64,000 bases of DNA, taken from contig NZ_BOOC01000018.1 of NCBI RefSeq assembly GCF_016863035.1, positions 1 through 64,000 on the forward strand. Reading direction: 5' to 3'. Every line of letters starts with the position of its first letter. The first letter of the stretch is position 1. This DNA is from Microbispora corallina (GTDB taxonomy: Bacteria; Actinomycetota; Actinomycetes; Streptosporangiales; Streptosporangiaceae). The notes under the pieces are model-generated. The model searched no databases and was not told the origin of the DNA. It saw only the letters and a program-made list of their open reading frames with translations. The translations under genes and the position numbers were made by a program. This document shows positions 49,660 through 63,931 of this stretch, piece by piece.

Positions 49660-50072
49660 CCGATCCCCGATCGCGCCCGGTGATGCGCGAGTCGTACGCC
49701 CCTCCGGCCCCCATGGGCGGCAGGGAGTCGACGAACCTCGGCGACATCCTCGAACGCGTCCTCGACCGGGGCGTGGTCATCGCCGGGGACATCCGGGTCA
49801 ACCTGCTCGACATCGAGCTCCTCACGATCAAGCTTCGGCTCGTCATCGCGTCGGTCGACACGGCCCGCGAGCTCGGGATCGACTGGTGGGAGCACGACCC
49901 GTGGCTCAGCGGCCGGGACAGGGAGCTCAAGGACGAGAACCGCAGGCTGCGCGAGCGCCTGGCCGCCGTCGAGGAGCGGCTGGTCGAGCGCGAGGCCGTC
50001 GAGGCGGGCGACCACGCCCCCGACGAGGCGGCCGCGCAGCGGCGGCGCGGAACGGAGAGGCGCCGTGAGTGA
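49656..50072 (+). CDS. gvpJ: GvpJ gas vesicle protein (GvpA family)
   Basis: A 138-aa GvpA-family protein. The core is NLGDILERVLDRGVVIAGDIRVNLLDIELLTIKLRLVIASVDTARE (about 27-72), and then WWEHDPWLSGRDRELKDENRRLRERL with a coiled-coil tail. GvpJ is a minor shell/tip component. ATG 49656 overlaps the gvpO stop (ATGA). Confidence 0.9.
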   Translation: MTDPRSRPVMRESYAPPAPMGGRESTNLGDILERVLDRGVVIAGDIRVNLLDIELLTIKLRLVIASVDTARELGIDWWEHDPWLSGRDRELKDENRRLRERLAAVEERLVEREAVEAGDHAPDEAAAQRRRGTERRRE

Positions 50073-50988
50073 GTACGGCATCTACCTGTACGCGGTGACC
50101 CCGGACGTCAGCGGGAACGCGACCGCAGGCACGACCCCCGACGAGGCCACAGGCACGACCGCGGGCGCCGGGCCCGGCACGCGCCCGGAGAGGGCCGCGG
50201 ACGTCAGCCGGGACACGAGGCGGGGCACCGGCCCCGGTCCCGGTGGCGGCACGGCCCGGCTGCACGGCGTGCTCGGCGGGCCGGTCCGCCCGATCCGTCA
50301 CGCCGGGCTGGTGGCCCACGTCGGCGAGGTCCCGCTCGACCAGTTCGGCGAGGGGCCGCTGCGCCGGCTGCTGGAGGACCTCGACTGGGTGGAGGGGGTG
50401 GCCCGGGCTCATCACCACGTGGTCGAGGCCCTCGCGGCGGCCGGCCCCGTCGCCCCCGTCCGGCTGGTGACGGTCTACACCGGCGAGGACCAGATCCGCG
50501 ACCTGCTCGACCGGCGCCGCGACGACTTCGCCGACCTGCTGGCGCGGGTGGCCGGGCGGCACGAATGGGGCGTCAAGGCGTACGTCACCCGGGCTGCCCC
50601 GCCGGCGCCCCCGGCCGTCCCCGCGTCCGGCCGCGGCTCGGCCAGCCCCGGCACGGCGTACCTCCAGCGTCGCAAGGCCAGCCTGCGCAGCAGGGAGGAC
50701 GTGTGGCGCGCGGCGGCCGAGCGTGCCGAGCGCCTGCACGCGGCGCTCGGCGAGATCGCCGTGGCCGGGCGGCGGCACCGGCCCCAGGACCCCCAGCTGT
50801 CCGGCCGGAGCGATGTCATGGTGCTGAACGGCGCGTACCTGGTCGACCCGGACCGGGACGGGGAGTTCGCCGCGGCCCTCGACGCGTTCCGGGGCGAGGG
50901 CATGGACGTGGAGCTGACCGGGCCGTGGGCGCCCTACTCGTTCACCTCCCTCGATCTGGGCTCCGACCGCGGAGGGGGCACGCGGTGA
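50065..50988 (+). CDS. gvpL: GvpF/L family gas vesicle protein (GvpL)
   Basis: A 307-aa GvpL: EYGIYLYAVTPDVSGNATAG, a long disordered Thr/Gly/Pro insert (about 20-65), then RPIRHAGLVAHVGEVPLDQFGEGPLRRLL, VVEALAAAGPVAPVRLVTVY and VMVLNGAYLVDPDR, GPWAPYSF. The insert is unusual compared with GvpF in the same operon. GTG 50065 overlaps gvpJ by 8 nt. Assembly chaperone by family. Confidence 0.88.
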   Translation: MSEYGIYLYAVTPDVSGNATAGTTPDEATGTTAGAGPGTRPERAADVSRDTRRGTGPGPGGGTARLHGVLGGPVRPIRHAGLVAHVGEVPLDQFGEGPLRRLLEDLDWVEGVARAHHHVVEALAAAGPVAPVRLVTVYTGEDQIRDLLDRRRDDFADLLARVAGRHEWGVKAYVTRAAPPAPPAVPASGRGSASPGTAYLQRRKASLRSREDVWRAAAERAERLHAALGEIAVAGRRHRPQDPQLSGRSDVMVLNGAYLVDPDRDGEFAAALDAFRGEGMDVELTGPWAPYSFTSLDLGSDRGGGTR

Positions 50989-51221
50989 CGATCGACGGCT
51001 CCAGGGGCAGGGCGCTCGCCGCCGAGGGACGCCTGCCGGCCGAGCGGGTGGCCCTGGTCGACCTGCTCGACCGGCTGCTCGCGGGCGGCGTGGTCGTGAC
51101 CGGCGAGCTGGTTCTGTCCATCGCCGACATCGAACTGGTCCGCATCTCGCTGCGAGCGCTGCTGGCCTCGGTGCGGGACGCCGACGAGGAGGAGGGCGAC
51201 GATGAGCCGTCCTGGCCCTGA
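50985..51221 (+). CDS. gvpS: GvpS gas vesicle protein (GvpA family)
   Basis: A 78-aa short GvpA-family protein: RVALVDLLDRLLAGGVVVTGELVLSIADIELVRISLRALLASV (about 23-65) and an acidic tail. It matches GvpS/GvpM-type minor components. GTG 50985 overlaps the gvpL stop (GTGA). Confidence 0.87.
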   Translation: MTIDGSRGRALAAEGRLPAERVALVDLLDRLLAGGVVVTGELVLSIADIELVRISLRALLASVRDADEEEGDDEPSWP

Positions 51222-51573
51222 CGAGGTCCGGGCGCCCGAAGGGCCCGAGGAGGAGGCGCGCGAGGGGATCGGCCTGCGTCTCGACCCCGCGAGATCGGGC
51301 CAGTGGCGCCTCAACACCGACCCCGAGACCGTCCAGCGCGACCTCAGCCGCCTGGTGCTGACGCTCGTCGAGCTCCTGCGGCAGCTCGTGGAACGGCAGT
51401 CCATCCGCAGGATGGAGCAGGGCGACCTGTCCGACGAGCAGATCGAGACGCTCGGCCTGACGCTGATGCGGCTGGAGGAGGCGATGACCGACCTCTGCGA
51501 CCGGTTCGGCCTGTCTCCCAGCGATCTGAACCTCGATCTCGGCCCGCTCGGGACCCTACTGCCGACGGACTGA
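51202..51573 (+). CDS. gvpK: GvpK gas vesicle protein
   Basis: A 123-aa helical protein: RLDPARSGQWRLNTDPETVQRDLSRLVLTLVELLRQLVERQSIRRMEQG and IETLGLTLMRLEEAMTDLCDRFGLSPSDLNLDLGPLGTLL. RQAIRRME- and LNLDLGPLGxLL-type motifs define GvpK. ATG 51202 overlaps gvpS by 20 nt. It is the last recognisable gvp gene in the operon. Confidence 0.92.
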   Translation: MSRPGPDEVRAPEGPEEEAREGIGLRLDPARSGQWRLNTDPETVQRDLSRLVLTLVELLRQLVERQSIRRMEQGDLSDEQIETLGLTLMRLEEAMTDLCDRFGLSPSDLNLDLGPLGTLLPTD

Positions 51574-53865: not shown

Positions 53866-54863
53866 GCGGGCTCGACTACGTCCTCCCGCTGCGGTGGGAC
53901 GACGACGAGGATCTCGACGAGCTGACCGCCTACCTGCGCGAACTCGCCAGGCACGCCCGAGTCGTGGTCGTGGACGGGTCTGCGGAGCCGCTGTTCGCGG
54001 GGCACGCCCGCCGCTGGGCGGGGATCGTCACACACCTGCCGCCCGACCCCGACGTGGACGCCGCCAACGGCAAGGTCGCCGGCGTCCTCACCGGCATGCG
54101 GCGGGCCGCCGCCGAGCACGTGGTCATCGCCGACGACGACGTCCGCTACGACGCCGAGGGGCTGGCGCGGATGCGTGCCTGGCTGGGCCGCGCCGACCTG
54201 GTCCGGCCGCAGAACTACTTCGACCCGATGCCCTGGCACGCCCGCTGGGACACCGCCCGCACGCTGCTCAACCGGAGCGTGGGCGCCGACTATCCGGGGA
54301 CCTTCGGCGTCCGCCGCGAGGTGTTCGCGAGGACGGGCGGCTACGACGGCGACGTCCTGTTCGAGAACCTGGAGCTGATCCGTACGGTCCGGGCCCACGG
54401 CGGCCGTGAGGCCCGCCCGCTCGACCTCTACGTGCGGCGTCTGCCGCCCCGGCCGCGCCGCTTCTGGAACCAGCGCGTACGGCAGGCCTACGACGACCTG
54501 GCCCAGCCGCCGCGCATGGCCGCGTTCCTGGCCGTGCTGCCCGGCGTCGGGGTGGCCCTCCTGCGGCGGCGTCCGGCCGTCGTCGCGGCCGGCGCGGCAG
54601 CCGTGGCCGCTCTCGCGGAGGCGGGACGCCGCCGGGCCGGGGGCCGCCGGGTGTTCCCGTTCACGGCGACCCTGTTCGCCCCGGTCTGGGTGCTCGAACG
54701 GGCCGTCTGCAGTTGGGCGGCCCTGGCGGCACGGCTGAGCGGCGGTGTCCCGTACGCCGGGCGGCGTCTGCGGGTGGCCGCCCACTCCGTCCGATGGCTG
54801 CGGGAGCGCCGTCAGGCCGGCGGGTCCGGCTCGCTCGCCGCCCGGAACCCGACGAGCTTGTGA
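53862..54863 (+). CDS. Glycosyltransferase family 2-like protein
   Basis: A 333-aa protein: LDYVLPLRWDDDEDLDELTAYLRELARHARVVVVDGS, HVVIADDDVRYDAEGL (the DxD/DDD metal motif), DYPGTFGVRREVFARTGGYDGDVLFENLELIRTV, and a C-terminal pair of membrane helices (MAAFLAVLPGVGVALL, VVAAGAAAVAALAEA). GT2-like, membrane anchored. GTG 53862 overlaps the redox protein stop (GTGA). It overlaps the convergent CDGSH gene by 52 nt. Confidence 0.85.
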   Translation: MSGLDYVLPLRWDDDEDLDELTAYLRELARHARVVVVDGSAEPLFAGHARRWAGIVTHLPPDPDVDAANGKVAGVLTGMRRAAAEHVVIADDDVRYDAEGLARMRAWLGRADLVRPQNYFDPMPWHARWDTARTLLNRSVGADYPGTFGVRREVFARTGGYDGDVLFENLELIRTVRAHGGREARPLDLYVRRLPPRPRRFWNQRVRQAYDDLAQPPRMAAFLAVLPGVGVALLRRRPAVVAAGAAAVAALAEAGRRRAGGRRVFPFTATLFAPVWVLERAVCSWAALAARLSGGVPYAGRRLRVAAHSVRWLRERRQAGGSGSLAARNPTSL

Positions 54864-55039
54864 GAGCCGTCGCAGAACGGCTTGGTCCCCGACCGGCCGC
54901 ACCGGCACAGCGCCACCGTGGCGCGGCCCGGGTCGATCGTCCGCCCGTCCTGCGTGACCAGCGTGAACGGCCCCCTCAGCAGCAGGGGGCCGTCCTCGCA
55001 CGGGGTCACCGTCACCAGGTCATCCGGCTCGTCCCTCAT
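54812..55039 (-). CDS. CDGSH iron-sulfur domain protein
   Basis: A 75-aa protein with the complete 2Fe-2S signature CRCGRSGTKPFCDGSH (three Cys and His). GPLLLRGPFTLVTQDGR precedes it. Such small proteins carry a redox-active, pH-sensitive cluster. The start ATG 55039 has GACGAGCC only downstream; upstream ribosome site weak. It converges with the glycosyltransferase and may supply electrons to the diiron protein two genes away. Confidence 0.9.
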   Translation of the reverse strand: MRDEPDDLVTVTPCEDGPLLLRGPFTLVTQDGRTIDPGRATVALCRCGRSGTKPFCDGSHKLVGFRAASEPDPPA

Positions 55040-55087
55040 GGCAGCCGCATGCCCGGATTGTCCGTTACCTAACGAAGGCCGCCAAGG

Positions 55088-57499
55088 TCATTCCGTCCGG
55101 GCGCAGGGGGCGGTCGGGCCGAAGGCCCAGCAGCCGGCGCGGTCGGCGGCGGCGTGCCAGGCCGCCGAGCCCGTCGGGGTGACGAACACCCCAGGGGGGA
55201 CGAGCGCCGCGGCCGGCTTGGAGACCACTCCCGCGGGAGGCGCGAAGGCCCAGTGCGGCGACGCCGGCGGCGGGGCGGCGTACCCCGGGACGTGCGCTCC
55301 CGTCCCGTACGGGATCGCCGGTGAGCCCGGCGAGCCGACGGTCCGGCTACGCCAGGGGGCGAGGCTCCAGCAGCCGGGCCCGCCGTACCCGCAGGAGTCC
55401 GGGGACGACCCGGTCACCAGCGGCGGCAGCGGCAGGTAGTGCGGGATCACGAACGACGGCCGCGGTTCGGGCCGGGGGCCGTCGCCCACGGGCGGCGGCG
55501 CGATCTCGTTGGGGGGCGTCCACGAGGGTGTCCCGGAGGGCGTGAGACCGCCGGGGACGGCACTCGGGGCGGTGGTCGGGGTTTCCGTCGCACCTGTCGT
55601 GGGGCCTGGGGTCGGGCTCACGCCCGCGCCTGCGCTCGGCACCCCGGCCGGGGCGGTGGCCGTGGCGCTGGGGGCGGGCGGTCTCGGCGGGGCCGGCGGG
55701 CTCGGCCTGGGCGCCGGGGGTTTGTGGTCGGGCGGCCGGTGCTTGGCCGAGGGCGCGGGCGACGGCTTGGCGGACGGGCTCGGCTTCGCGGACGGGCTCG
55801 GTTTCGGTGAGGCGCTCGCGGACGGGCTCGGCTTGGGCGACGCGCTGCCCGTGGGGCTGGGCGTCGGCGAGGCGCCGGCGCTCGGGGTGGCCGACGCGCC
55901 GGCGGTCGGCGACGCGCTGGGTGACGTGCTGGGTGACGTGCTGGGCTTCGGCGATCCGCTGCCGCTCGGCACGGGCGCGACCGTCACGCCCGCCGTCGTC
56001 GAGGGTGTCACGGTGGGCGACGCGGACGCGGTGACGGTGGGGGTGGCGGCGGATGGGGACGCCGTCGGCGACGCGGACGCGCCGGCGCCGCCCGTGGGAG
56101 TGGGGCTCGCCGCCGTGGAACTCGCCGTAGGACTCGCCGTGGGGGCGGCGGTGGGCGTCACGGTGACGGTCGCCGTGGGCGCCGGCTGGGCGCTCGCGGT
56201 GCTCGTCGGCCATCCGTGACCCGTCGGCCGCGCCGTCGGACGCCACGGGGCGTGCCCCGGCGGACGCCAGCGCGGGTGACCGGGAACGGGCGGAATCCCG
56301 CGACCGGTGGGCGCTGCCGTCGGAGCCGGAGCACCGGTGGGCGCGGACCCCGACGACGTCGGGGAGGGCAGCGGGTACGGCGTGGGGGTGGGCGTCCCCT
56401 GCGCCGTCACTGTCGCGGTGACCGTGACGGTCGCCGTCGGGGAAGGAACCCCGGCCGGGTTGGCGGATGGAGTGTCGGTCGGTGGAGGCGGGACCGCCCC
56501 CCACGGCCAAGGAGCGCCGGTGGGCCGGAGATCGCCGGTGGGAACGGCGGAGGCGGTCGGGTGAGCCGTCGGGGTACCGGTGGGGCGGTGGTGGGGGCGG
56601 TGCAGCCGGGCCGTCCCGGGGGCCGCACTCGCCGAGGGGGTCACCGTGTGGGTCTGGTTCGCGGTCCCGCCGCCGGCGACCGCGCCTCCCGATGATCCGG
56701 ACAGGTGGGAGCCCGTCCTGGTGCCGCCTGCCGTGTCCCGAGCGGTGTCCTGAGCCGTGTCCCGGGCCGTGTCCTGAGCCGTGTCGGAGGCGGCTCCGCT
56801 CCCGGTGTCCGAGTCGCGCGACGCGCCGGCGCCGTCGGCCGTACCCCGCAAGCCGGAGCCGGACCCGGACCCAGAGTCGCGCGACGCGCTCGTACTGTCG
56901 GCCGTACCCCGCGAGCCCGAGCCGGACCCGGAGTCAGGGGCGGCGGCGTCGCGGGCCGGATCCGTCGCGGAGCCGTCTCCGGCGCCGGAATCGCCGGCCG
57001 ACCCCGAGCCCTGGCCGCCGGTGTCCGTTCCGGAGCCGCTCTCGGTGGCGGAATCCTCGGCGCCGGATCCGCCGCCCGGGTCCGGGCGGTCGGCGGATGA
57101 GCCGGACCCTCCGGACGCGGATCCCCGCGACCCGGTCTCGTCGGAAGCGGAGTCTCCGGACGAGCGGCCCGTGGCGGAGGACCCGGAACCGGACGCGTCC
57201 GAACGTGAGCCTGAATCGGAGCGCGAGCCGGAATCGGACCCGGCACCGGAGTCGGACCTGGAGCCGGAGCCGGAATCGGCCGCGGGGTCCGACCCGGCGG
57301 ACGAGGGCTCCTCGTCCGACGGGGCGGGGACGGGCTGGACGGCGTCGGAGGCGGCGGCGTCCAGGGGCGGGACGGTGTCGGCGCCGGGGTCGGCCATCGC
57401 CGTCCAGGGCTGGGACGCGACGGCCCCGGCGGTGGCGGAGACGGCGGCCAGGAGGAGGCCGGAGACCAGGGTGGCGCGCCGGGATGACATGCGTGTCAT
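55088..57499 (-). CDS. Secreted mucin-like Ser/Pro/Thr-rich surface protein
   Basis: An 803-aa protein with a signal peptide (MTRMSSRRATLVSGLLLAAVSATAGAVA, cleavage near 28). It then has long disordered tracts: Ser/Asp/Gly repeats (SGSGSRSDSGAGSDSGSR), Thr/Ala/Pro stretches and PSPSASPKPS-type tandem motifs. It ends in a small Cys-containing domain (SPDSCGYGGPGCWSLAPW, AGCWAFGPTAPCARTE) with four Cys. No sortase motif or C-terminal anchor is visible. Likely glycosylated surface or matrix protein. The plus-strand shadow frames over it come from its GC bias. Coding status is supported by the signal peptide and paired Cys. Confidence 0.75.
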   Translation of the reverse strand: MTRMSSRRATLVSGLLLAAVSATAGAVASQPWTAMADPGADTVPPLDAAASDAVQPVPAPSDEEPSSAGSDPAADSGSGSRSDSGAGSDSGSRSDSGSRSDASGSGSSATGRSSGDSASDETGSRGSASGGSGSSADRPDPGGGSGAEDSATESGSGTDTGGQGSGSAGDSGAGDGSATDPARDAAAPDSGSGSGSRGTADSTSASRDSGSGSGSGLRGTADGAGASRDSDTGSGAASDTAQDTARDTAQDTARDTAGGTRTGSHLSGSSGGAVAGGGTANQTHTVTPSASAAPGTARLHRPHHRPTGTPTAHPTASAVPTGDLRPTGAPWPWGAVPPPPTDTPSANPAGVPSPTATVTVTATVTAQGTPTPTPYPLPSPTSSGSAPTGAPAPTAAPTGRGIPPVPGHPRWRPPGHAPWRPTARPTGHGWPTSTASAQPAPTATVTVTPTAAPTASPTASSTAASPTPTGGAGASASPTASPSAATPTVTASASPTVTPSTTAGVTVAPVPSGSGSPKPSTSPSTSPSASPTAGASATPSAGASPTPSPTGSASPKPSPSASASPKPSPSAKPSPSAKPSPAPSAKHRPPDHKPPAPRPSPPAPPRPPAPSATATAPAGVPSAGAGVSPTPGPTTGATETPTTAPSAVPGGLTPSGTPSWTPPNEIAPPPVGDGPRPEPRPSFVIPHYLPLPPLVTGSSPDSCGYGGPGCWSLAPWRSRTVGSPGSPAIPYGTGAHVPGYAAPPPASPHWAFAPPAGVVSKPAAALVPPGVFVTPTGSAAWHAAADRAGCWAFGPTAPCARTE

Positions 57500-57518
57500 G
57501 AGGGGGCTCTTCCTTGAT

Positions 57519-58271
57519 CTATGGGGTGGGCCGGGGAGCGGTCAGGGACTTCCAGCCGGCGGCGGCGAACTCGGGTGTGCCGGGCAGCGCGGCGGGAGGC
57601 ACCGAGGGCGGCGTCGGGTCGGGGACGTTGACCCAGTCGCCCTTTCCCGCGCCCCGCATGTCGGGGGCCCAGGCCATGAGCAGGCTCATGGCGTACGGGC
57701 TGGAGTAGAGGGGGCCGGTCCCGCCGGCGCCCTTGGAGGCGGTCACCTGGACCAGCACCGACACCTGGATCTGGTCCTCCGACCGAGCCGTCCACTGGAT
57801 GCCGATCGTCTGCGTGCGCAGCGCGGCGCCGTCCGGCAGGTCGCCCTCCGCGGGGAGGCCGAGCGTCTCCCGCCAGCCCCGTACGGCCGCGCGGGCGCCG
57901 TCCCTGGCCGCCTGCCGCTGGTCCGGCGGCGCGTACAGGGCCGCGGCCTGCTCCGCCTGGGCGCTGTCGAGCGTCCACGCGGCCTCCAGCGCGGCCGCGG
58001 CCGCCGACGCGGCGCCCAGGTCCGTACGGGGGAAGCCGACGGGGTAGCCGCCCTCGCCCTCGTGGCCCGACGGGGCGGCCAGGGCGATCGCGGGCGCGGC
58101 GACCGGCTTCGGAACGGGTGCCGGGCCCGGCCCCCTGGTCTCCAGCACGATGACCGCGACCGCGACGACGGTGATCACCCCGACGACCACCAGCAGGAGG
58201 TGGCGGGGGTCCCACCGCCGGGGCGGCCCCAGGTCCCAGTCGAGGACCGGGTCCGGGATGATCGCCCCCAC
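57519..58271 (-). CDS. Membrane-anchored protein of unknown family
   Basis: A 250-aa protein. After a short cytoplasmic start (VGAIIPDPVLDWDLGPPRRWD), one membrane helix (LLLVVVGVITVVAVAVIVL) leads to an extracytoplasmic domain: GGYPVGFPRTDLGAASAAAAALEAAW, AAALYAPPDQRQAARDG, QTIGIQWTARSEDQIQVSVLVQV and WVNVPDPTPPSVPP. It looks like an anchored VirB8- or TcpC-like accessory, as found in conjugative or surface-protein loci, but I cannot name the family. GTG 58271 overlaps the ATPase stop by one base, so it is coupled to the EspI-like gene. Confidence 0.72.
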   Translation of the reverse strand: MGAIIPDPVLDWDLGPPRRWDPRHLLLVVVGVITVVAVAVIVLETRGPGPAPVPKPVAAPAIALAAPSGHEGEGGYPVGFPRTDLGAASAAAAALEAAWTLDSAQAEQAAALYAPPDQRQAARDGARAAVRGWRETLGLPAEGDLPDGAALRTQTIGIQWTARSEDQIQVSVLVQVTASKGAGGTGPLYSSPYAMSLLMAWAPDMRGAGKGDWVNVPDPTPPSVPPAALPGTPEFAAAGWKSLTAPRPTP

Positions 58272-59251
58272 TACTCGCTCCGGCCGGGGCGCTGCCCGAA
58301 GGCCTGGCCGGCCGCCGCCGCGAGACGCAGGTACGCGCCGCGGGTGGTGGGGCGCAGCCGGGTCAGGTCGACCTCGGCGCCCTCCTTCAGATGCGGGTCG
58401 AACGGCACCCGCACGACGGCGCGGCAGCGGTTGGAGAAGTGCCGTTCCAGCAGGTCGACGTCGACGTGCGACTTCGGCTCGACGGCGTTGAGCACGACGA
58501 TGGCGTTCTTCACGAGCTCGCCGTGGCCGTGGGCCGTCAGCCAGTCGAGGGTGGCCGCGGCGGAGCTCGCGCCGTCCACGGCGACGAGCGTGACCAGCAC
58601 GATCTGGTCGGCCATCTCCAGCGTCGCGCCCATGGCCCCGTGGAGCAGGCCGGTGCCGCAGTCGGTGATGCAGATCGAGTAGTACCGCTCGATCAGCCCG
58701 GCCACCGTACGGTAGTCCTCGGCGTCGAACGCCTCGCTCACCGCGGGATCGGTGTCGGAGGCCAGCACCTCCAGCCGGGCGGGCGACTGCGAGGTGAACG
58801 CCCGGGCGTCGGCGTACCGGACGACGTGCGGCGCCTCTGCCAGCAGCGTCCGTATCGTGGCGGCGGTCTCCGACTTCACCTTGATGCCGAGGGTCCCGCG
58901 GTCGGGGTTGGCGTCGATCGCGATCACACGGTCGCCGCGCAGCGACGCCAGCGTGTTCCCGAGCGCGGCGGTCGTCGTGGTCTTGCCGACGCCGCCCTTG
59001 AGGCTCATGACGGCGATCCGGTGATGGCCGCTCGCCACGGGGGTCTGGGCATGCGCGATCAGGGTACGCCGTTCCAGTTCGGCCGCCGACTCCGCGGGGA
59101 TGACGCGGCCGCCCGAGAGCTGGTAGACGAGCCGGCGCCAGCCGCCGGTGGGCTCGCTGCGCCGATTGGTCAGCAGGTGTTCCGCGGTCAGGGGCACCGA
59201 CTCCGGGTACTGCCCGGCGGGAACGGGCAGCGGAGTGTGCGTGTCGGTCAT
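58271..59251 (-). CDS. EspI-like MinD/ParA family ATPase
   Basis: A 326-aa P-loop ATPase with a deviant Walker A KGGVGKTTTTAAL (about 99-111), a switch region DANPDRGTLG and CITDCGTGL for Walker B. The N-terminal block WRRLVYQLSGGRVIPAESAAELERRTLIAH closely follows the ESX-1 EspI layout, and the C-terminal VRVPFDPHLKEGAEVDLTRLRPTTRGAYL also fits. EspI proteins couple ATP to type VII secretion or its regulation. ATG 59251 has AAAGGA about 8 nt upstream. No EccC, EsxA/B or other ESX core gene lies in the window. Confidence 0.83.
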   Translation of the reverse strand: MTDTHTPLPVPAGQYPESVPLTAEHLLTNRRSEPTGGWRRLVYQLSGGRVIPAESAAELERRTLIAHAQTPVASGHHRIAVMSLKGGVGKTTTTAALGNTLASLRGDRVIAIDANPDRGTLGIKVKSETAATIRTLLAEAPHVVRYADARAFTSQSPARLEVLASDTDPAVSEAFDAEDYRTVAGLIERYYSICITDCGTGLLHGAMGATLEMADQIVLVTLVAVDGASSAAATLDWLTAHGHGELVKNAIVVLNAVEPKSHVDVDLLERHFSNRCRAVVRVPFDPHLKEGAEVDLTRLRPTTRGAYLRLAAAAGQAFGQRPGRSE

Positions 59252-59292
59252 GGCCGTGGTCCTTTCACCGAGGGGGGATCGGGAGGGGACGG

Positions 59293-61263
59293 TCAGCAGG
59301 TGCGCCAGCGCACCGTCGTCGTGGCCGTGCCCTTCGGTCCGTGCAGTTCGAGGGGGGCTGTGACAGGGGCGGGGACGCCGCACCAATAGCGGACGCGGAG
59401 GGCGCGCACGCTGATCACACCGGTCTGGCCGGGTTTGAGCGTTCCGCTGGACGGCGTGACGGACAGGCCCGGCGCCGTTATCCGCCACCGCAGGGTGGCG
59501 CCGGATCCGGCGGTGAGTGTGAGACGGCCCCGGCCGAAGTCGTCGAGCGCGAGCGTGGCCGGCACCCCGATCCCGCCCGCCGACACCAGTTGGGGCGACG
59601 GGTCGACCGGGCCGGGCCCGGTGCCGGCGGCGGGAACGGCGGCGGCGTCCACCGTGGCCGTGGTCACGTCCGTCTGGAGCGAGCGCGCCGGGTCCTCGCC
59701 ATGGGTGGCGGGCGCCAGGAGGTTGATGCCCGTGACAGTTCCCGCCGCTCCGGCGACGACCACGATCACGATCCGCAACGCCGTGGCCCGCACGAGGGAG
59801 CCGACCCGGGTGAGCACGCGCACGATCCTGACCTGCGCCCCGGCGACGCGTCCCTCCACGGCGTCCGCGAGCAGGTCCTCCGGCACGTCGTCCTGTTCCG
59901 CTCCGGACGGCACGGCGGATCGCGCGCGGGCCGCCTCCCTCGCCTGGATCTGCGAGAGCAGGGCGTCGTAGAGCGGGGTGTCCTGCGCGGCGGATCTCTG
60001 CTCGTCCCCGCCGCCCCGGGCGACCGGGCCACGGGTTGCCGAGCCGCCGGTGACCGGCCCGGGGGCGGCCGGGTCGCGGGCGACCGAGCCGCGGGTGACT
60101 GGCCCGGGGATGACCGGCCCGGCCGGGGCGTCCGTACGCGGCAGGGCCGGGCCGCCGGGAGCGGCGCCGGGCCTGGTCTCGGGCCGCTGCGGCCGGGGCT
60201 CGACCGGCGCGTGCGGATGCCGGCGTCTGTCGAGCGGGGCGTGCGGATGCCTGCGCGTCTGCGGCGGCACGGCCGGGCTCGCCGGCCCGGCCGCGGCTGC
60301 GGGCGGCACCTGCCCGGGAACAGGCCCGGCGGGAGTGGACGGCACCTGCCCAGGGACGAGCCCGGCGGGAGCGGGCGACTGTGCGGCGGACACCGGCGGT
60401 CGAGCGGGACCCGCAGGCGTTCCGGCGGGAGCCGCCGGCGGTCGAGCGGAGGGCGCCGGGAGGTCGTGGTCCGTCGCCACGGGCGCCGCGAGCGGCAGGC
60501 CGAACGACGTCGGCGGCCGGTGAGCCGACGCGCCCGCGGGGGGCGCGGCCACGGTGACGGCCTCGACCAGGCGCCGCCGGGCGTCGGAGGTGAGCGGGGC
60601 CAGCGGAGGCCGCGACAGGATCTGCGGCACCGTGTAGCGGATGTTGATGGGCCGCTTGCACACCACGCACGTCACGATGTGCGTCAGCAGAGCCGTACGC
60701 GGGGCCCCGAAGTCGGCCGGCCCGCCCTCGGGGAAGACGGCCCCGGCCAGTGCGGCGATCTCGGGGCAGAGCGGGCGGCCGCGCGCCAGGCCGTCGAGCC
60801 CGCTCACCAGGATCTCCACCATGTCCTGTGTGCGGGCGACGAGCCGTGCGGCCTCCTTCACCGCCAGCGCCTGGACGTACGCGAGGTCCCTGAGCTGCAA
60901 CTCATGGCGGTACAGCAGCCGCAAGGTCTCCGCGCCGACGGGATCGACGAGCGACCAGGCGCGACGGACGGCCCGGTCGTCGGGCACGCCGGGGCCCGGC
61001 CCCGGGCGGAAGCCGTCACCCCGGACGGCGCCAGGGCCGCACTCCCGGCGCAGCGCGGACAGCAGCCACGCGCGGTCTGCAACGTTCCCGGGCTTCGCCT
61101 GGACGGCGCACGCCTCCAGGGCCGCACCGGCGGCCCCGAGCACGCGCGAGGGCTCCAGGTGAAAGGAGGCGTAGTCGACAAGGTGGGCGCCGTGCTCGTC
61201 GACCCATGCCATCCCCCGGCCGGGGTCGAGCTCGACGTCCCCGGTCCCGGTGGGCGGGGTCAT
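59293..61263 (-). CDS. Sigma-factor-like / zinc-finger / transmembrane / Ig-like chimeric protein
   Basis: A 656-aa protein. The N-terminus (1-170) is helical and sigma-region-like (VDYASFHLEPSRVLGAAGAALEACA; AETLRLLYRHELQLRDLAYVQALAV). A Cys-x2-Cys knuckle follows (HIVTCVVCKRPINI), like an anti-sigma zinc finger. Then a long Pro/Ala-rich linker (about 240-420), one membrane helix (LRIVIVVVAGAAGTVTGINLL) and a C-terminal Ig/BACON-like domain (LTAGSGATLRWRITAPGLSVTPSSG). The sigma-like region lacks a full recognition helix, so it may be a decoy or signalling domain. ATG 61263. The gene is upstream of and probably in operon with the EspI-like gene. Confidence 0.72.
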   Translation of the reverse strand: MTPPTGTGDVELDPGRGMAWVDEHGAHLVDYASFHLEPSRVLGAAGAALEACAVQAKPGNVADRAWLLSALRRECGPGAVRGDGFRPGPGPGVPDDRAVRRAWSLVDPVGAETLRLLYRHELQLRDLAYVQALAVKEAARLVARTQDMVEILVSGLDGLARGRPLCPEIAALAGAVFPEGGPADFGAPRTALLTHIVTCVVCKRPINIRYTVPQILSRPPLAPLTSDARRRLVEAVTVAAPPAGASAHRPPTSFGLPLAAPVATDHDLPAPSARPPAAPAGTPAGPARPPVSAAQSPAPAGLVPGQVPSTPAGPVPGQVPPAAAAGPASPAVPPQTRRHPHAPLDRRRHPHAPVEPRPQRPETRPGAAPGGPALPRTDAPAGPVIPGPVTRGSVARDPAAPGPVTGGSATRGPVARGGGDEQRSAAQDTPLYDALLSQIQAREAARARSAVPSGAEQDDVPEDLLADAVEGRVAGAQVRIVRVLTRVGSLVRATALRIVIVVVAGAAGTVTGINLLAPATHGEDPARSLQTDVTTATVDAAAVPAAGTGPGPVDPSPQLVSAGGIGVPATLALDDFGRGRLTLTAGSGATLRWRITAPGLSVTPSSGTLKPGQTGVISVRALRVRYWCGVPAPVTAPLELHGPKGTATTTVRWRTC

Positions 61264-61857
61264 GCGCGGGAAGGCGGGGCGAGGGTGGGATCGGCGTCAT
61301 GTTCGGACAGCGCATCACTGCGGCCAAGGGGTCGCCCTTGCCTAACTGGAAAATCTGATGCATACCGATACATAGAACGAGATCTTAGACTGACTCCGTT
61401 GTGTTGGGAAGGAAAAGAACCAGAGAAATCATGGGTTGATGATAAGCCGCAAATAACCGCTATCCGGTCAGCCGAAAGGGACCCAGACAGGGCGGCCGAT
61501 ACGGCGCCGAGTTCTCTGCAGAGGATGGCATTCACGGCCGCCATACGCATACTTACCTGCGGATACACGGATATCAGAAGATCGCCGGCGAGGGCGCCGT
61601 TTCCGTTCCGGACTTTGTCCGGCCACCTTGTGGGCACATCGAGGTGAATATCCTTCATATCTGGGAAAGACTCGGGCGGTGGGGCCATTTCCCATGCTTT
61701 CTCGGCATTACAGCACGCGCACAGCCGATGCCGAGACGCAGCGGCCGGCCGATCTCTCCCACGCACCCGGAGAGCCGTTCATCAGATAATCATTCTTTTC
61801 CGTTTCCACATCGGAAAGCGCGCAACCGCGCGGTGGGCGGCCACCGAAGAAACAGGC
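61264..61857. other. AT-richer divergent spacer
   Basis: A 594-nt region, clearly lower in GC than its flanks (for example around 61360-61470 and 61770-61810), between the 656-aa gene and the photolyase. A minus frame of about 168 aa and a plus frame of similar length are open, but both have mixed third positions and no ribosome site, so I do not call them. It must contain both promoters. Confidence 0.5.
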
Positions 61858-63150
61858 GTGGACACCATCGTCGTGCTGTTCAACAGGGACCTGCGGGTGC
61901 ACGATCATCCGGCGCTCGCGGAGGCCTGCGCGCGGGCGGGGCGGGTGGTGCCCCTGTTCGTGCTCGACCCGGCCATCGAGGCGCGGCATCGCCGGGACTT
62001 CCTGCACGAGACCCTCCACGACCTGCGGTCGTCTCTGCGAACCCGCGGCGGCGACCTCGTCGTACGGCGGGGGGATCCGGCGGAGGAGGCCGTCCGGGTG
62101 GCCGGCGAGACCTCCGCCACCCGGATCTGGGCCGGCGGCGACGTGAGCTCCCTCGCCCGGCGGCGGGAGGGCCGGCTGGCCGGGGCCTGCCGGGCCCGGC
62201 GGCTGGAGTTCCGCCTGTTCCCGGGGGTGACCGTGGTGCCGCCCGCCGCCCTGACCCCTTCGGGGGGCGACCACTACCGCGTGTTCACGCCGTACTGGCG
62301 GGCCTGGTCGGCGACGCCGAGGCGTCCGGTGCTCGGCCCGCCCGAGCGCGTACGGCTCCCGGACGGCCTGGACCCCGGCGACCTGCCCGAGCCGTCGTCC
62401 GAGCCGTTCGGCGTCGTCAGGGGCGGCGAGACCGAGGGGCGGCGGCGCATGGCGGAGTGGGTGGACGCCGGGCTGGCCCGGTACGCCGGCACCCGCGACC
62501 ACGTGGCCGGGCGCACGTCGATGCTCAGCGCGTACCTCCACTTCGGCTGCGTGTCCCCCACCGAGCTGGTCGAGCTGGCGTGCGCGCGGCCGGACGCGGA
62601 GGACTACGTCCGGCAGCTCTGCTGGCGGGACTTCTACTACCAGGTCGCCTACGCCTTCCCCGACCTCGGACGGCGCGACTACCGGCCGCGGGCCGACCTC
62701 GACTGGGCCGGGGACGGGGACGCGGCGGCGGCCTGGCGGGAGGGGGTGACCGGCGTGCCGATCGTGGACGCGGGCATGCGCCAGCTCCGGCGGGAGGGCT
62801 GGATGCACAACCGGGTCCGGCTGATCGTGGGCTCCTACCTGACGAAACGGCTCAGGATCGACTGGCGGGTGGGCGTCGACCACTTCGCCGAGCTCCTGCT
62901 CGACGGCGACATGCCGAACAACTGCGGCAACTGGCAGTGGGTGGCCGGCACGGGCAACGACACCCGCCCCTACCGCACGCTCAACCCGCTGCGGCAGGCC
63001 AGGAGGTTCGACCCGGACGGCGAATACGTCCGCCGGTACGTCCCCGAGCTGGCGTCCCTGCCGGACGACCTGGTCCACGAGCCGTGGCGGTCCCCGGCGC
63101 CGGTGCGGGGCTACCCGCCACGCCCGCTGGGCGGCGAGCTCAGGGCCTGA
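61858..63150 (+). CDS. Deoxyribodipyrimidine photolyase
   Basis: A 430-aa cryptochrome/photolyase. The N-terminal alpha/beta antenna domain begins VDTIVVLFNRDLRVHDHPALAEA. The FAD-binding helical domain has SAYLHFGCVSPTEL, QLCWRDFYYQVAYAF, RRMAEWVD and VDAGMRQLRREGWMHNRVRL, ending with NNCGNWQWVAGTGNDTRP and LNPLRQARRFD. It repairs UV pyrimidine dimers with blue light. GTG 61858 has weak upstream bases (AACAGGC). The end overlaps the TetR gene by 11 nt. Confidence 0.9.
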   Translation: MDTIVVLFNRDLRVHDHPALAEACARAGRVVPLFVLDPAIEARHRRDFLHETLHDLRSSLRTRGGDLVVRRGDPAEEAVRVAGETSATRIWAGGDVSSLARRREGRLAGACRARRLEFRLFPGVTVVPPAALTPSGGDHYRVFTPYWRAWSATPRRPVLGPPERVRLPDGLDPGDLPEPSSEPFGVVRGGETEGRRRMAEWVDAGLARYAGTRDHVAGRTSMLSAYLHFGCVSPTELVELACARPDAEDYVRQLCWRDFYYQVAYAFPDLGRRDYRPRADLDWAGDGDAAAAWREGVTGVPIVDAGMRQLRREGWMHNRVRLIVGSYLTKRLRIDWRVGVDHFAELLLDGDMPNNCGNWQWVAGTGNDTRPYRTLNPLRQARRFDPDGEYVRRYVPELASLPDDLVHEPWRSPAPVRGYPPRPLGGELRA

Positions 63151-63931
63151 CCGGCCGGGGGGCGGCCAGTTTGGCGAGCTGGCCGAGAACCCGGTCCCGG
63201 TACTCCCGCGACAGCGGGTCGACGCCGAAGACGTCCTCCACGACCCGGGGCAGGGCGATCGGCGCGAAGGTCAGCGCGTAGGCGAGCAGGAGCAGGAACT
63301 CGGCGTCCAGCTCGCCGGTGATCTCGCCGGCCTCCTGACGGCGTCGCGTCCGCTCGACGGCGTCCCTGAGCCGGGCCCGCCGGGCCTCCTCCCAGTCGTC
63401 CCCGCCGCCGGCCGCCCGCCCCTCCCCCTCGCCGGCCGCCGGCCCGTCCTCGTGAGCGGCCGCCGGCCCGTCCTCGTGAGCGGCCGCCGACCCGTCCGCA
63501 CCCTCGGCCGCCTGCCCGTCCGCGTCGCCGGTTGCCTGCCCGTCTCCGTCCGCGGGCGGCCGGCCGTCGCCGAGCGCCTGCCAGATCACCAGGCGGGCCC
63601 AGTCGGGCCGGTCGAGGGTCGCGTCGAGATGGGCGGCCACGCTCTCCACGTACGTCGCACCGGGAGCCGTGACGGCGGCCTGCTCGGCGGCCCACCTGCG
63701 GCGCAGCTCGTCGAGGAGCCCGCGCTTGCCGCCGAAGTAGTACGAGATGAGCTGCTGGTTCACCCCGGCCCGGGCGGCGATGCCCGCCGTCCGCGCCCCC
63801 GAGTAGCCCTTCGCGCCGAACTCCGCCACGGCCGCCCGCAGGATGCGCTCGCACGTCCGCTCGGCGGCTCTGCCGCGCTCCTCCCGTTCGGGCGCGCGAC
63901 GGGGCCGATCCGATGAGACCATGTCCGGCAC
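63140..63931 (-). CDS. TetR family regulator with repeat insertion
   Basis: A 263-aa TetR protein. The DNA-binding domain is ERTCERILRAAVAEFGAKGYSGARTAGIAARAGVNQQLISYYFGGKRGLLDEL. The C-terminal ligand domain is split by a low-complexity segment (about 127-178: ADGDGQATGDADGQAAEG; AAAHEDGP repeats). Normal TetR proteins are about 190-220 aa, so the insertion accounts for the excess length. GTG 63931 is 9 nt before ATG 63922, either of which may be the start. TetR-like dyads at 63963-63987 lie in the spacer to the divergent gene that starts at 63992, so it probably represses itself and that gene. Confidence 0.85.
   Translation of the reverse strand: MPDMVSSDRPRRAPEREERGRAAERTCERILRAAVAEFGAKGYSGARTAGIAARAGVNQQLISYYFGGKRGLLDELRRRWAAEQAAVTAPGATYVESVAAHLDATLDRPDWARLVIWQALGDGRPPADGDGQATGDADGQAAEGADGSAAAHEDGPAAAHEDGPAAGEGEGRAAGGGDDWEEARRARLRDAVERTRRRQEAGEITGELDAEFLLLLAYALTFAPIALPRVVEDVFGVDPLSREYRDRVLGQLAKLAAPRPVRP
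63434..63481 (-). repeat. 24-nt tandem repeat in TetR gene
   Basis: Two identical 24-nt units at 63434-63457 and 63458-63481, then a partial third copy. On the minus strand they encode the AAAHEDGP units of the TetR insertion. Copy number may vary between strains. Confidence 0.85.

What the first reader, a model, noticed from the sequence alone, without database searches (positions are those of the whole stretch)
57519..61263. Detached EspI-type locus with a sigma/zinc-finger/membrane chimera and a mucin-like protein
An EspI-like MinD ATPase is coupled to an anchored unknown protein and follows a chimeric protein that has sigma-like, zinc-knuckle, transmembrane and Ig-like parts. A mucin-like secreted protein is next. 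No ESX core gene is present. The set looks like a novel envelope-sensing or secretion-linked module.
Basis: partly seen in the sequence, partly recalled or inferred. Interest (0 to 1): 0.6.

Follow-up and report, generated by a model that had tools for sequence, protein, structure and literature searches.

The report
Conserved envelope operon with sigma-like receptor
A group of soil bacteria keeps a private, tightly packed set of envelope genes that ties a membrane-bound protein derived from a transcription factor to parts resembling two unrelated secretion machines, and what it builds or senses is still unknown.

Summary
On the minus strand of a Microbispora contig lie A (59293-61263), B (58271-59251), C (57519-58271) and D (55088-57499). 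A is a divergent ECF-sigma/zinc-anti-sigma (ZAS) fusion with one membrane helix and an Ig/PapD-like ectodomain. B is a MinD-type ATPase. C is VirB8-like (a type IV secretion subunit). D is a mucin-like exported protein. A-B-C keep order and strand in 38 of 38 named loci from nine Streptosporangiaceae genera. Many other loci add two anchored proteins upstream and a GH16-like protein downstream. A near-invariant promoter occurs once per genome, almost only where C occurs: 24 and 24 of 120 genomes, 23 shared. Microbispora lost the two upstream genes but kept the promoter and a 37-codon remnant overlapping A. No ESX or type IV core gene lies nearby. I read it as a family-specific envelope operon: a sigma-derived transmembrane receptor beside an ATPase/VirB8-like pair. 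No sigma model matches any of 28 A members, so transcriptional activity is doubtful. The function is inferred.

The parts
61371..61412 (-). Private, near-invariant promoter-like element: CCTTCCC (61406-61412), N11, GTCAGTC (61388-61394), -10-like TAAGAT (61382-61387), 8 nt, ATG (61371-61373); geometry of a leaderless mRNA (inferred)
   Evidence: found in window plus 32 of 38 loci; one copy per genome in 24 of 120 family genomes; 0 in the backward-pattern control
61260..61373 (-). 37-codon leader ORF (MYRYASDFP...), vestige of the N-terminus of lost gene U1; its stop overlaps the start of A (ATGA)
   Evidence: 36-37 codons in 13 sequences (window, Microbispora, Planotetraspora, Sphaerimonospora); similar to the MSRYASDFP/MSWRASDFP starts of full-length U1 in other genera
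59293..61263 (-). Gene A, 656 aa: sigma2-like + sigma4-like + ZAS zinc domain + Pro-rich linker + TM + Ig/PapD-like ectodomain
61039..61224 (-). A: sigma region 2-like helices (residues 14-75), region 2.2 signature lost
60784..60978 (-). A: sigma region 4-like helices (residues 96-160), invariant RTQD where the basic recognition helix is expected
60652..60768 (-). A: ZAS/zf-HC2-like zinc motif C-x28-HxxxCxxC (residues 166-204)
59836..60531 (-). A: Pro-rich, predicted disordered cytoplasmic linker (about residues 245-476)
59716..59772 (-). A: transmembrane helix (residues 498-516), R on the N-terminal side
59296..59589 (-). A: extracytoplasmic beta-sandwich (residues 559-656), MSP/PapD/ASH-like, two invariant Cys (628, 656)
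58271..59251 (-). Gene B, 326 aa: MinD/ParA-type ATPase, Walker A KGGVGKTTTT; 84-92% identical between relatives
57519..58271 (-). Gene C, 250 aa: single TM (22-45) + VirB8/NTF2-like domain (about 80-231); shares one base with the stop of B
55088..57499 (-). Gene D, 803 aa: exported mucin-like Ser/Thr/Pro-rich protein (45% STP) with a conserved C-terminal segment containing 4 Cys

Best explanation
A family-specific envelope operon. A is a transmembrane receptor/anchor made from an ECF-sigma/anti-sigma fusion: an outside Ig-like domain reads the state of the wall or binds D (or U1, U2, E in other genera), and an inside ZAS domain holds a decayed sigma domain. B (ATP-driven MinD-type switch) and C (VirB8-like envelope protein) form an inner-membrane pair that positions or assembles a wall-associated complex with the mucin-like D. 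I think the sigma part most likely works through protein contacts (a pseudo-sigma dock held by ZAS) rather than as a free promoter-selecting factor. Shown: gene order, domain make-up, predicted folds of C and of the ectodomain, private promoter-like element, absence of U1/U2 in Microbispora. Inferred: complex formation, sensing, positioning, inactivity of the sigma part.
For: A-B-C same order and strand in 38 of 38 loci. U2/A overlap by 4 bp in 19 of 23, B/C by 1-4 bp in 32 of 36. The other products except B look anchored or exported. C folds like VirB8/DotI/CagV/TcpC: the first 22 rows by Z are all T4SS proteins, Z 8.4-9.7; 10 of 12 distant C relatives fetched lie beside VirB4-, SCO6880- or VirD4-like genes. 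MinD + VirB8-like pairing recurs in the same genome: a TcpE::MinD fusion beside a TcpC. A joins sigma/ZAS paralogues by profile (98.4%, E 5e-15), and those match ECF sigma structures (SigW 4e-8). ZAS ligands invariant, while 0 of 28 A members match any Pfam sigma model, region 2.2 has lost its acidic/Gln pattern (pattern recalled) and the recognition-helix equivalent is neutral to acidic in most members.
Against: No interaction or phenotype data. A single-copy private promoter beside a sigma-derived gene is what an autoregulated ECF sigma would also show. Decay of sequence signatures is not proof of lost function. D and E were found in only 16 and 19 of 38 loci (gene calling was crude), so they may be peripheral. 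The fold search could not test the sigma/ZAS half of the A model, because the ectodomain filled the list.
Confidence: 0.45

Rival explanations
1. A is an active one-component ECF-type sigma factor: the ectodomain senses the wall, proteolysis frees sigma from ZAS, and it transcribes its own operon from the private promoter, as proposed for ECF48/52/53.
For: Same domain set as ECF52 SCO4117 (PMC5826349) and proteolysis model (PMC8999054); promoter-like element restricted to this operon, 23 of 24 genomes shared with C; helices of sigma2 and sigma4 kept in the model.
Against: No Pfam sigma match in 28 of 28; region 2.2 and recognition-helix features lost; the element has a -10 of the housekeeping TAnnnT kind (recalled) and no ECF-type -35 'AAC' conserved in all (recalled rule).
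Confidence: 0.3
2. A-B-C is a domesticated part of a conjugation/T4SS-like translocator: C and B work with an unlinked T4SS motor (for example the Tcp/VirB locus on C14) to export D or other substrates.
For: C is VirB8-like with T4SS-linked relatives; the window's genome has a TcpC, TcpE::MinD, VirB4, VirB6 locus.
Against: No T4SS gene other than C within about 7 kb in 38 loci; the Tcp locus has its own VirB8-like and MinD parts; D has an ordinary-looking N-terminal export signal.
Confidence: 0.15
3. One reading: a detached EspI-type, ESX-linked module.
For: B relatives at 49-51% identity sit in an ESX locus of a Mycolicibacterium plasmid.
Against: A is in 14 of 14 congeners, but an EccC over the cut-off in only 10 of 14 and not in the window's genome; no B near EccC in 6 relatives' loci examined; partner C is not ESX-like.
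Confidence: 0.04
4. An ordinary set of envelope genes that merely sit together by common descent, with no joint function.
For: D and E vary; Microbispora lacks U1/U2.
Against: Overlapping reading frames, order kept across nine genera, one private promoter-like element.
Confidence: 0.06

Closest known systems
ECF52 sigma factor SCO4117 of Streptomyces coelicolor (and ECF48/ECF53 fusions)
   Same: Sigma, zinc anti-sigma, TM, Pro-rich and extracytoplasmic domain in one chain; Actinobacteria only (PMC5826349 abstract and passages; PMC8999054 section 16).
   Different: In A the Pro-rich part is cytoplasmic, between ZAS and TM; the ectodomain is a short Ig/PapD-like fold, not the carbohydrate-binding module reported for SCO4117; the sigma signatures are lost; A sits in an operon with B and C, which the passages read do not describe for SCO4117.
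VirB8/TcpC/DotI/CagV subunits of T4SS
   Same: C: single N-terminal TM and NTF2-like ectodomain; distant relatives beside VirB4/SCO6880/VirD4-like genes.
   Different: No T4SS motor, VirB6 or coupling gene adjacent; paired with B and A instead.
EspI-like (ESX-locus) and TcpE-fused MinD ATPases
   Same: B: the same MinD-type ATPase domain.
   Different: No long N-terminal region in B, no ESX locus; B orthologues are 84-92% identical across the set, ESX-locus relatives 49-51%.
Sigma-SsdA/SipA of Actinoplanes missouriensis (PMC10733313, passages)
   Same: An unusual sigma/anti-sigma domain shuffle in spore-forming actinomycetes.
   Different: Different domains (anti-sigma antagonist), different partners; no B/C-like genes mentioned in the passages read.

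Membership tests
ECF sigma-ZAS-TM fusion (ECF48/52/53-like) | Sigma2 and sigma4 domains recognised by curated models | tested here: not met
   0 of 28 A members match a Pfam sigma model; only indirect kinship through paralogues
ECF sigma-ZAS-TM fusion (ECF48/52/53-like) | ZAS/zf-HC2 zinc ligands C..HxxxCxxC after sigma4 | tested here: met
   C166, H195, C199, C202 invariant in 28; my regex found the motif in 27 of 28, the one miss (L164) not traced; no Pfam zf-HC2 match in A itself
ECF sigma-ZAS-TM fusion (ECF48/52/53-like) | One or two TM helices and an extracytoplasmic domain | tested here: met
ECF sigma-ZAS-TM fusion (ECF48/52/53-like) | Transcription initiation by the sigma part | not testable with these tools
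   needs run-off transcription or RNA-seq
T4SS VirB8 family (gene C) | Single TM plus NTF2-like ectodomain | tested here: met
   CagV prob 1.00, E 8e-3; Z up to 9.7
T4SS VirB8 family (gene C) | Sequence relatives inside T4SS operons | tested here: met
   10 of 12 distant loci fetched, plus 2 plasmids; L103 had only the membrane protein, L104 none
Type IV secretion system (whole locus) | VirB4, VirB6 and VirD4-type genes in the locus | tested here: not met
   no hit within about 7 kb in 38 loci
ESX/EspI | MinD-type ATPase domain like those in ESX loci | tested here: met
   49-51% identity to two MinD genes in an ESX locus
ESX/EspI | Location beside eccA-E, mycP, WXG100 genes | tested here: not met
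   window neighbours named are not ESX; EccC loci of six relatives hold no B
ESX/EspI | Long Pro-rich N-terminal region before the ATPase (recalled) | tested here: not met
   B has about 80 residues before the P-loop domain; the paralogue in L137 has about 600

The most novel reading that the evidence does not exclude
A new kind of envelope machine specific to Streptosporangiaceae: a sigma factor turned into a transmembrane scaffold/receptor, energised and positioned by a MinD-type ATPase and a VirB8-like protein, that builds or monitors a mucin-like and glucan-trimmed wall layer during hyphal or spore morphogenesis, and is made from a leaderless promoter used nowhere else in the genome.
Probability: 0.25. 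Interest if true: 0.8.

Novelty: new variant of a known kind. Interest (0 to 1): 0.6.

Why it matters
It joins pieces of three systems normally kept apart (ECF sigma/anti-sigma signalling, MinD positioning, T4SS VirB8) in one conserved operon with a single private promoter. If A is a pseudo-sigma, it shows how a transcription factor becomes a membrane scaffold. If A is active, it is a one-component sigma factor whose only visible target is its own envelope operon, which makes it easy to test. It also gives a VirB8-like protein a home outside a secretion locus.

Tried and rejected
Pfam and NCBIfam on A, C and D, and PHROGs on A and C, gave no naming match. Sequence profiles of A, B and C against the PDB gave no useful match. 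Rfam found nothing around the promoter. The sigma-70 promoter scan found no consensus site in 54600-62000. Idea that the private element marks a wider regulon: rejected for this genome, one copy with up to 3 mismatches. Idea that U1/U2 moved elsewhere in Microbispora: no match to U1 or U2 in the window's genome and 14 congeners; for U2 no positive-control genome was in the set, so that absence is weaker. Fold search of A did not list sigma factors: the ectodomain filled the list, so this is no evidence either way. Gene calls in the box used a simple codon-bias script with start-site errors, so family and gap counts are approximate. Paper searches for the combination found nothing describing it; only the held open-access library was searched.
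Full report
What is there. Minus strand, in order: a promoter-like element at 61371-61412, a 37-codon leader ORF 61260-61373, A 59293-61263, B 58271-59251, C 57519-58271, D 55088-57499. The leader stop and the start of A overlap (ATGA). The stop of B and the start of C share one base.

Gene A. Pfam, NCBIfam and PHROGs give no naming match. A weaker relative in congeners (L047, L108) matches Sigma70_r4_2 (7.5e-9 and 1.2e-9) and, below the curated cut-offs, Sigma70_r2 (L047 only) and zf-HC2 in one chain. hhalign joins the A profile to that group over A 13-204 (probability 98.4%, E 5e-15), and the group's profile matches ECF sigma structures over both regions (SigW 4e-8). The AlphaFold model has helices for sigma2 (14-75), sigma4 (96-160) and ZAS, a disordered Pro-rich linker, a helix through the membrane and a beta-sandwich 559-655 (pLDDT about 90 in most of 20-240 and 560-656, low between). 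The sandwich matches MSP/PapD/ASH folds (Foldseek E about 1e-5; Z up to 12.0, rmsd 2.1, 89 aligned). Zinc ligands and two ectodomain cysteines are invariant. None of 28 members matches a Pfam sigma model. The region-2.2 equivalent is mostly Ala/Val, and the recognition-helix equivalent carries 1-4 K/R against 3-5 D/E with an invariant RTQD. So the anti-sigma half is kept and the sigma half has drifted; whether it still transcribes is open.

Gene B is a MinD/ParA ATPase (CbiA 6e-12), 84-92% identical between relatives. The window's genome holds two paralogues: one 64% identical with a long N-terminal region, beside genes that look like serS and pheA (recalled from their sequences), and one 37% identical, fused to TcpE in a TcpC/VirB4/VirB6 locus. 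Relatives at 49-51% lie in an ESX locus of a Mycolicibacterium plasmid.

Gene C. Outside this family set, C matches only distantly: class-wide, 9 genomes match strongly and 23 weakly, of 296. The 9 strong ones are the same 9 that match A strongly. Of 12 distant loci fetched, 10 have VirB4-, SCO6880- or VirD4-like genes, as have two plasmids. The model (pLDDT 83) matches CagV (probability 1.00, but E only 8e-3) and, by VIA-align, DotI, CagV, VirB8 and TcpC-type proteins fill the first 22 rows (Z 9.7 to 8.4). Unrelated NTF2-like folds follow at Z 8.3, so fold alone would be modest evidence; the neighbourhoods decide it.

Gene D is Ser/Thr/Pro-rich (45%) with a basic-hydrophobic N-terminus and a conserved C-terminal segment with four cysteines.

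Conservation. A was found in 18 of 60 relatives including all 14 congeners. One scan of named genomes with the C profile gave 38 loci in Microbispora, Streptosporangium, Microtetraspora, Planotetraspora, Sphaerimonospora, Planomonospora, Planobispora, Thermocatellispora and Thermoactinospora. All 38 have A-B-C on one strand in order, and none has a T4SS hit other than C nearby. U1 (22 loci) and U2 (23) precede A, and E (19), GH16-like by Pfam (6.7e-5 and 4.6e-7 in the two tested), follows D or C. In 14 of the 19 E proteins a GH16-type E-[IV]-D-F motif was found; in 5 of those 14 the last acid of the motif is Gly, so some E may not be catalytic. U1 and U2 were not found in 15 Microbispora genomes (the second without a positive control).

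Promoter. The element is in the window and in 32 of 38 loci. The misses are L148 and L162 (short contigs), L152 and L171 (stretch begins about where the element should be), L167 and L169 (really not found). In 33 sequences the distance from TAAKAT to the start codon is always 8 nt. In 13 the ORF so started is the 36-37-codon leader before A, in 20 it is full-length U1. L176 shows a diverged form. A family-wide pattern search with up to 2 mismatches found it once each in 24 of 120 genomes, with 0 in the backward control. C is in 24 of 120. Comparing the two lists by eye, 23 are shared and in 22 of those both are on one contig (the exception is G365); G362 has only the element and G023 only C. 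The window's genome has one copy of the inner part with up to 3 mismatches. The simple reading is that Microbispora lost U1 and U2 by an internal deletion that spared the promoter and left a leader coupled to A.

ESX. An EccC over the cut-off is in 10 of 14 congeners but not in the window's genome, G001, G004, G009 or G011, whereas A is in all. Six EccC loci of relatives show no B relative within about 10 kb. A SCO6880-type T4SS protein is not found in the window's genome.

Literature. ECF52 SCO4117 (PMC5826349; abstract and passages) and the ECF48/52/53 proteolysis model (PMC8999054; passages and section 16) are the nearest described architecture to A. PMC10733313 (passages) describes another odd sigma system in sporangium formers. 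Searches for the combination found no description (listings only).

Verdict. A real, conserved, family-specific envelope operon. I favour a sigma-derived receptor/scaffold with an ATPase/VirB8-like platform (0.45) over an active one-component sigma factor (0.30). The ESX reading is unlikely.

Noticed in passing
window 54812-55039 (-): Small CDGSH iron-sulphur protein (Pfam zf-CDGSH 3.6e-20) just downstream of D, also after D in several Microbispora loci.
   Followed up: partly
window 50065-51573 (+): Gas vesicle genes GvpL/F (6.5e-57) and GvpK (1.4e-36); also downstream of the operon in most Microbispora loci.
   Followed up: no
window 61858-63150 (+) and 63140-63931 (-): DNA photolyase and TetR regulator beside the operon; photolyase is the neighbour only in Microbispora and Planotetraspora loci.
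   Followed up: no
L138 (window's genome, contig C14), 5141-14538: Chromosomal TcpC / TcpE::MinD fusion / VirB4 / VirB6-like locus: a MinD ATPase physically fused to a conjugation protein.
   Followed up: partly
L137:9975-12599 (-): 874-aa orphan EspI-like MinD protein with no ESX hit within its 20-kb stretch, between genes that look metabolic.
   Followed up: partly
L151, L160, L161, L177, L178 downstream of C: GH16-like secreted proteins in which the last acid of the EIDF[LM]E motif is Gly, perhaps binding rather than cutting.
   Followed up: no
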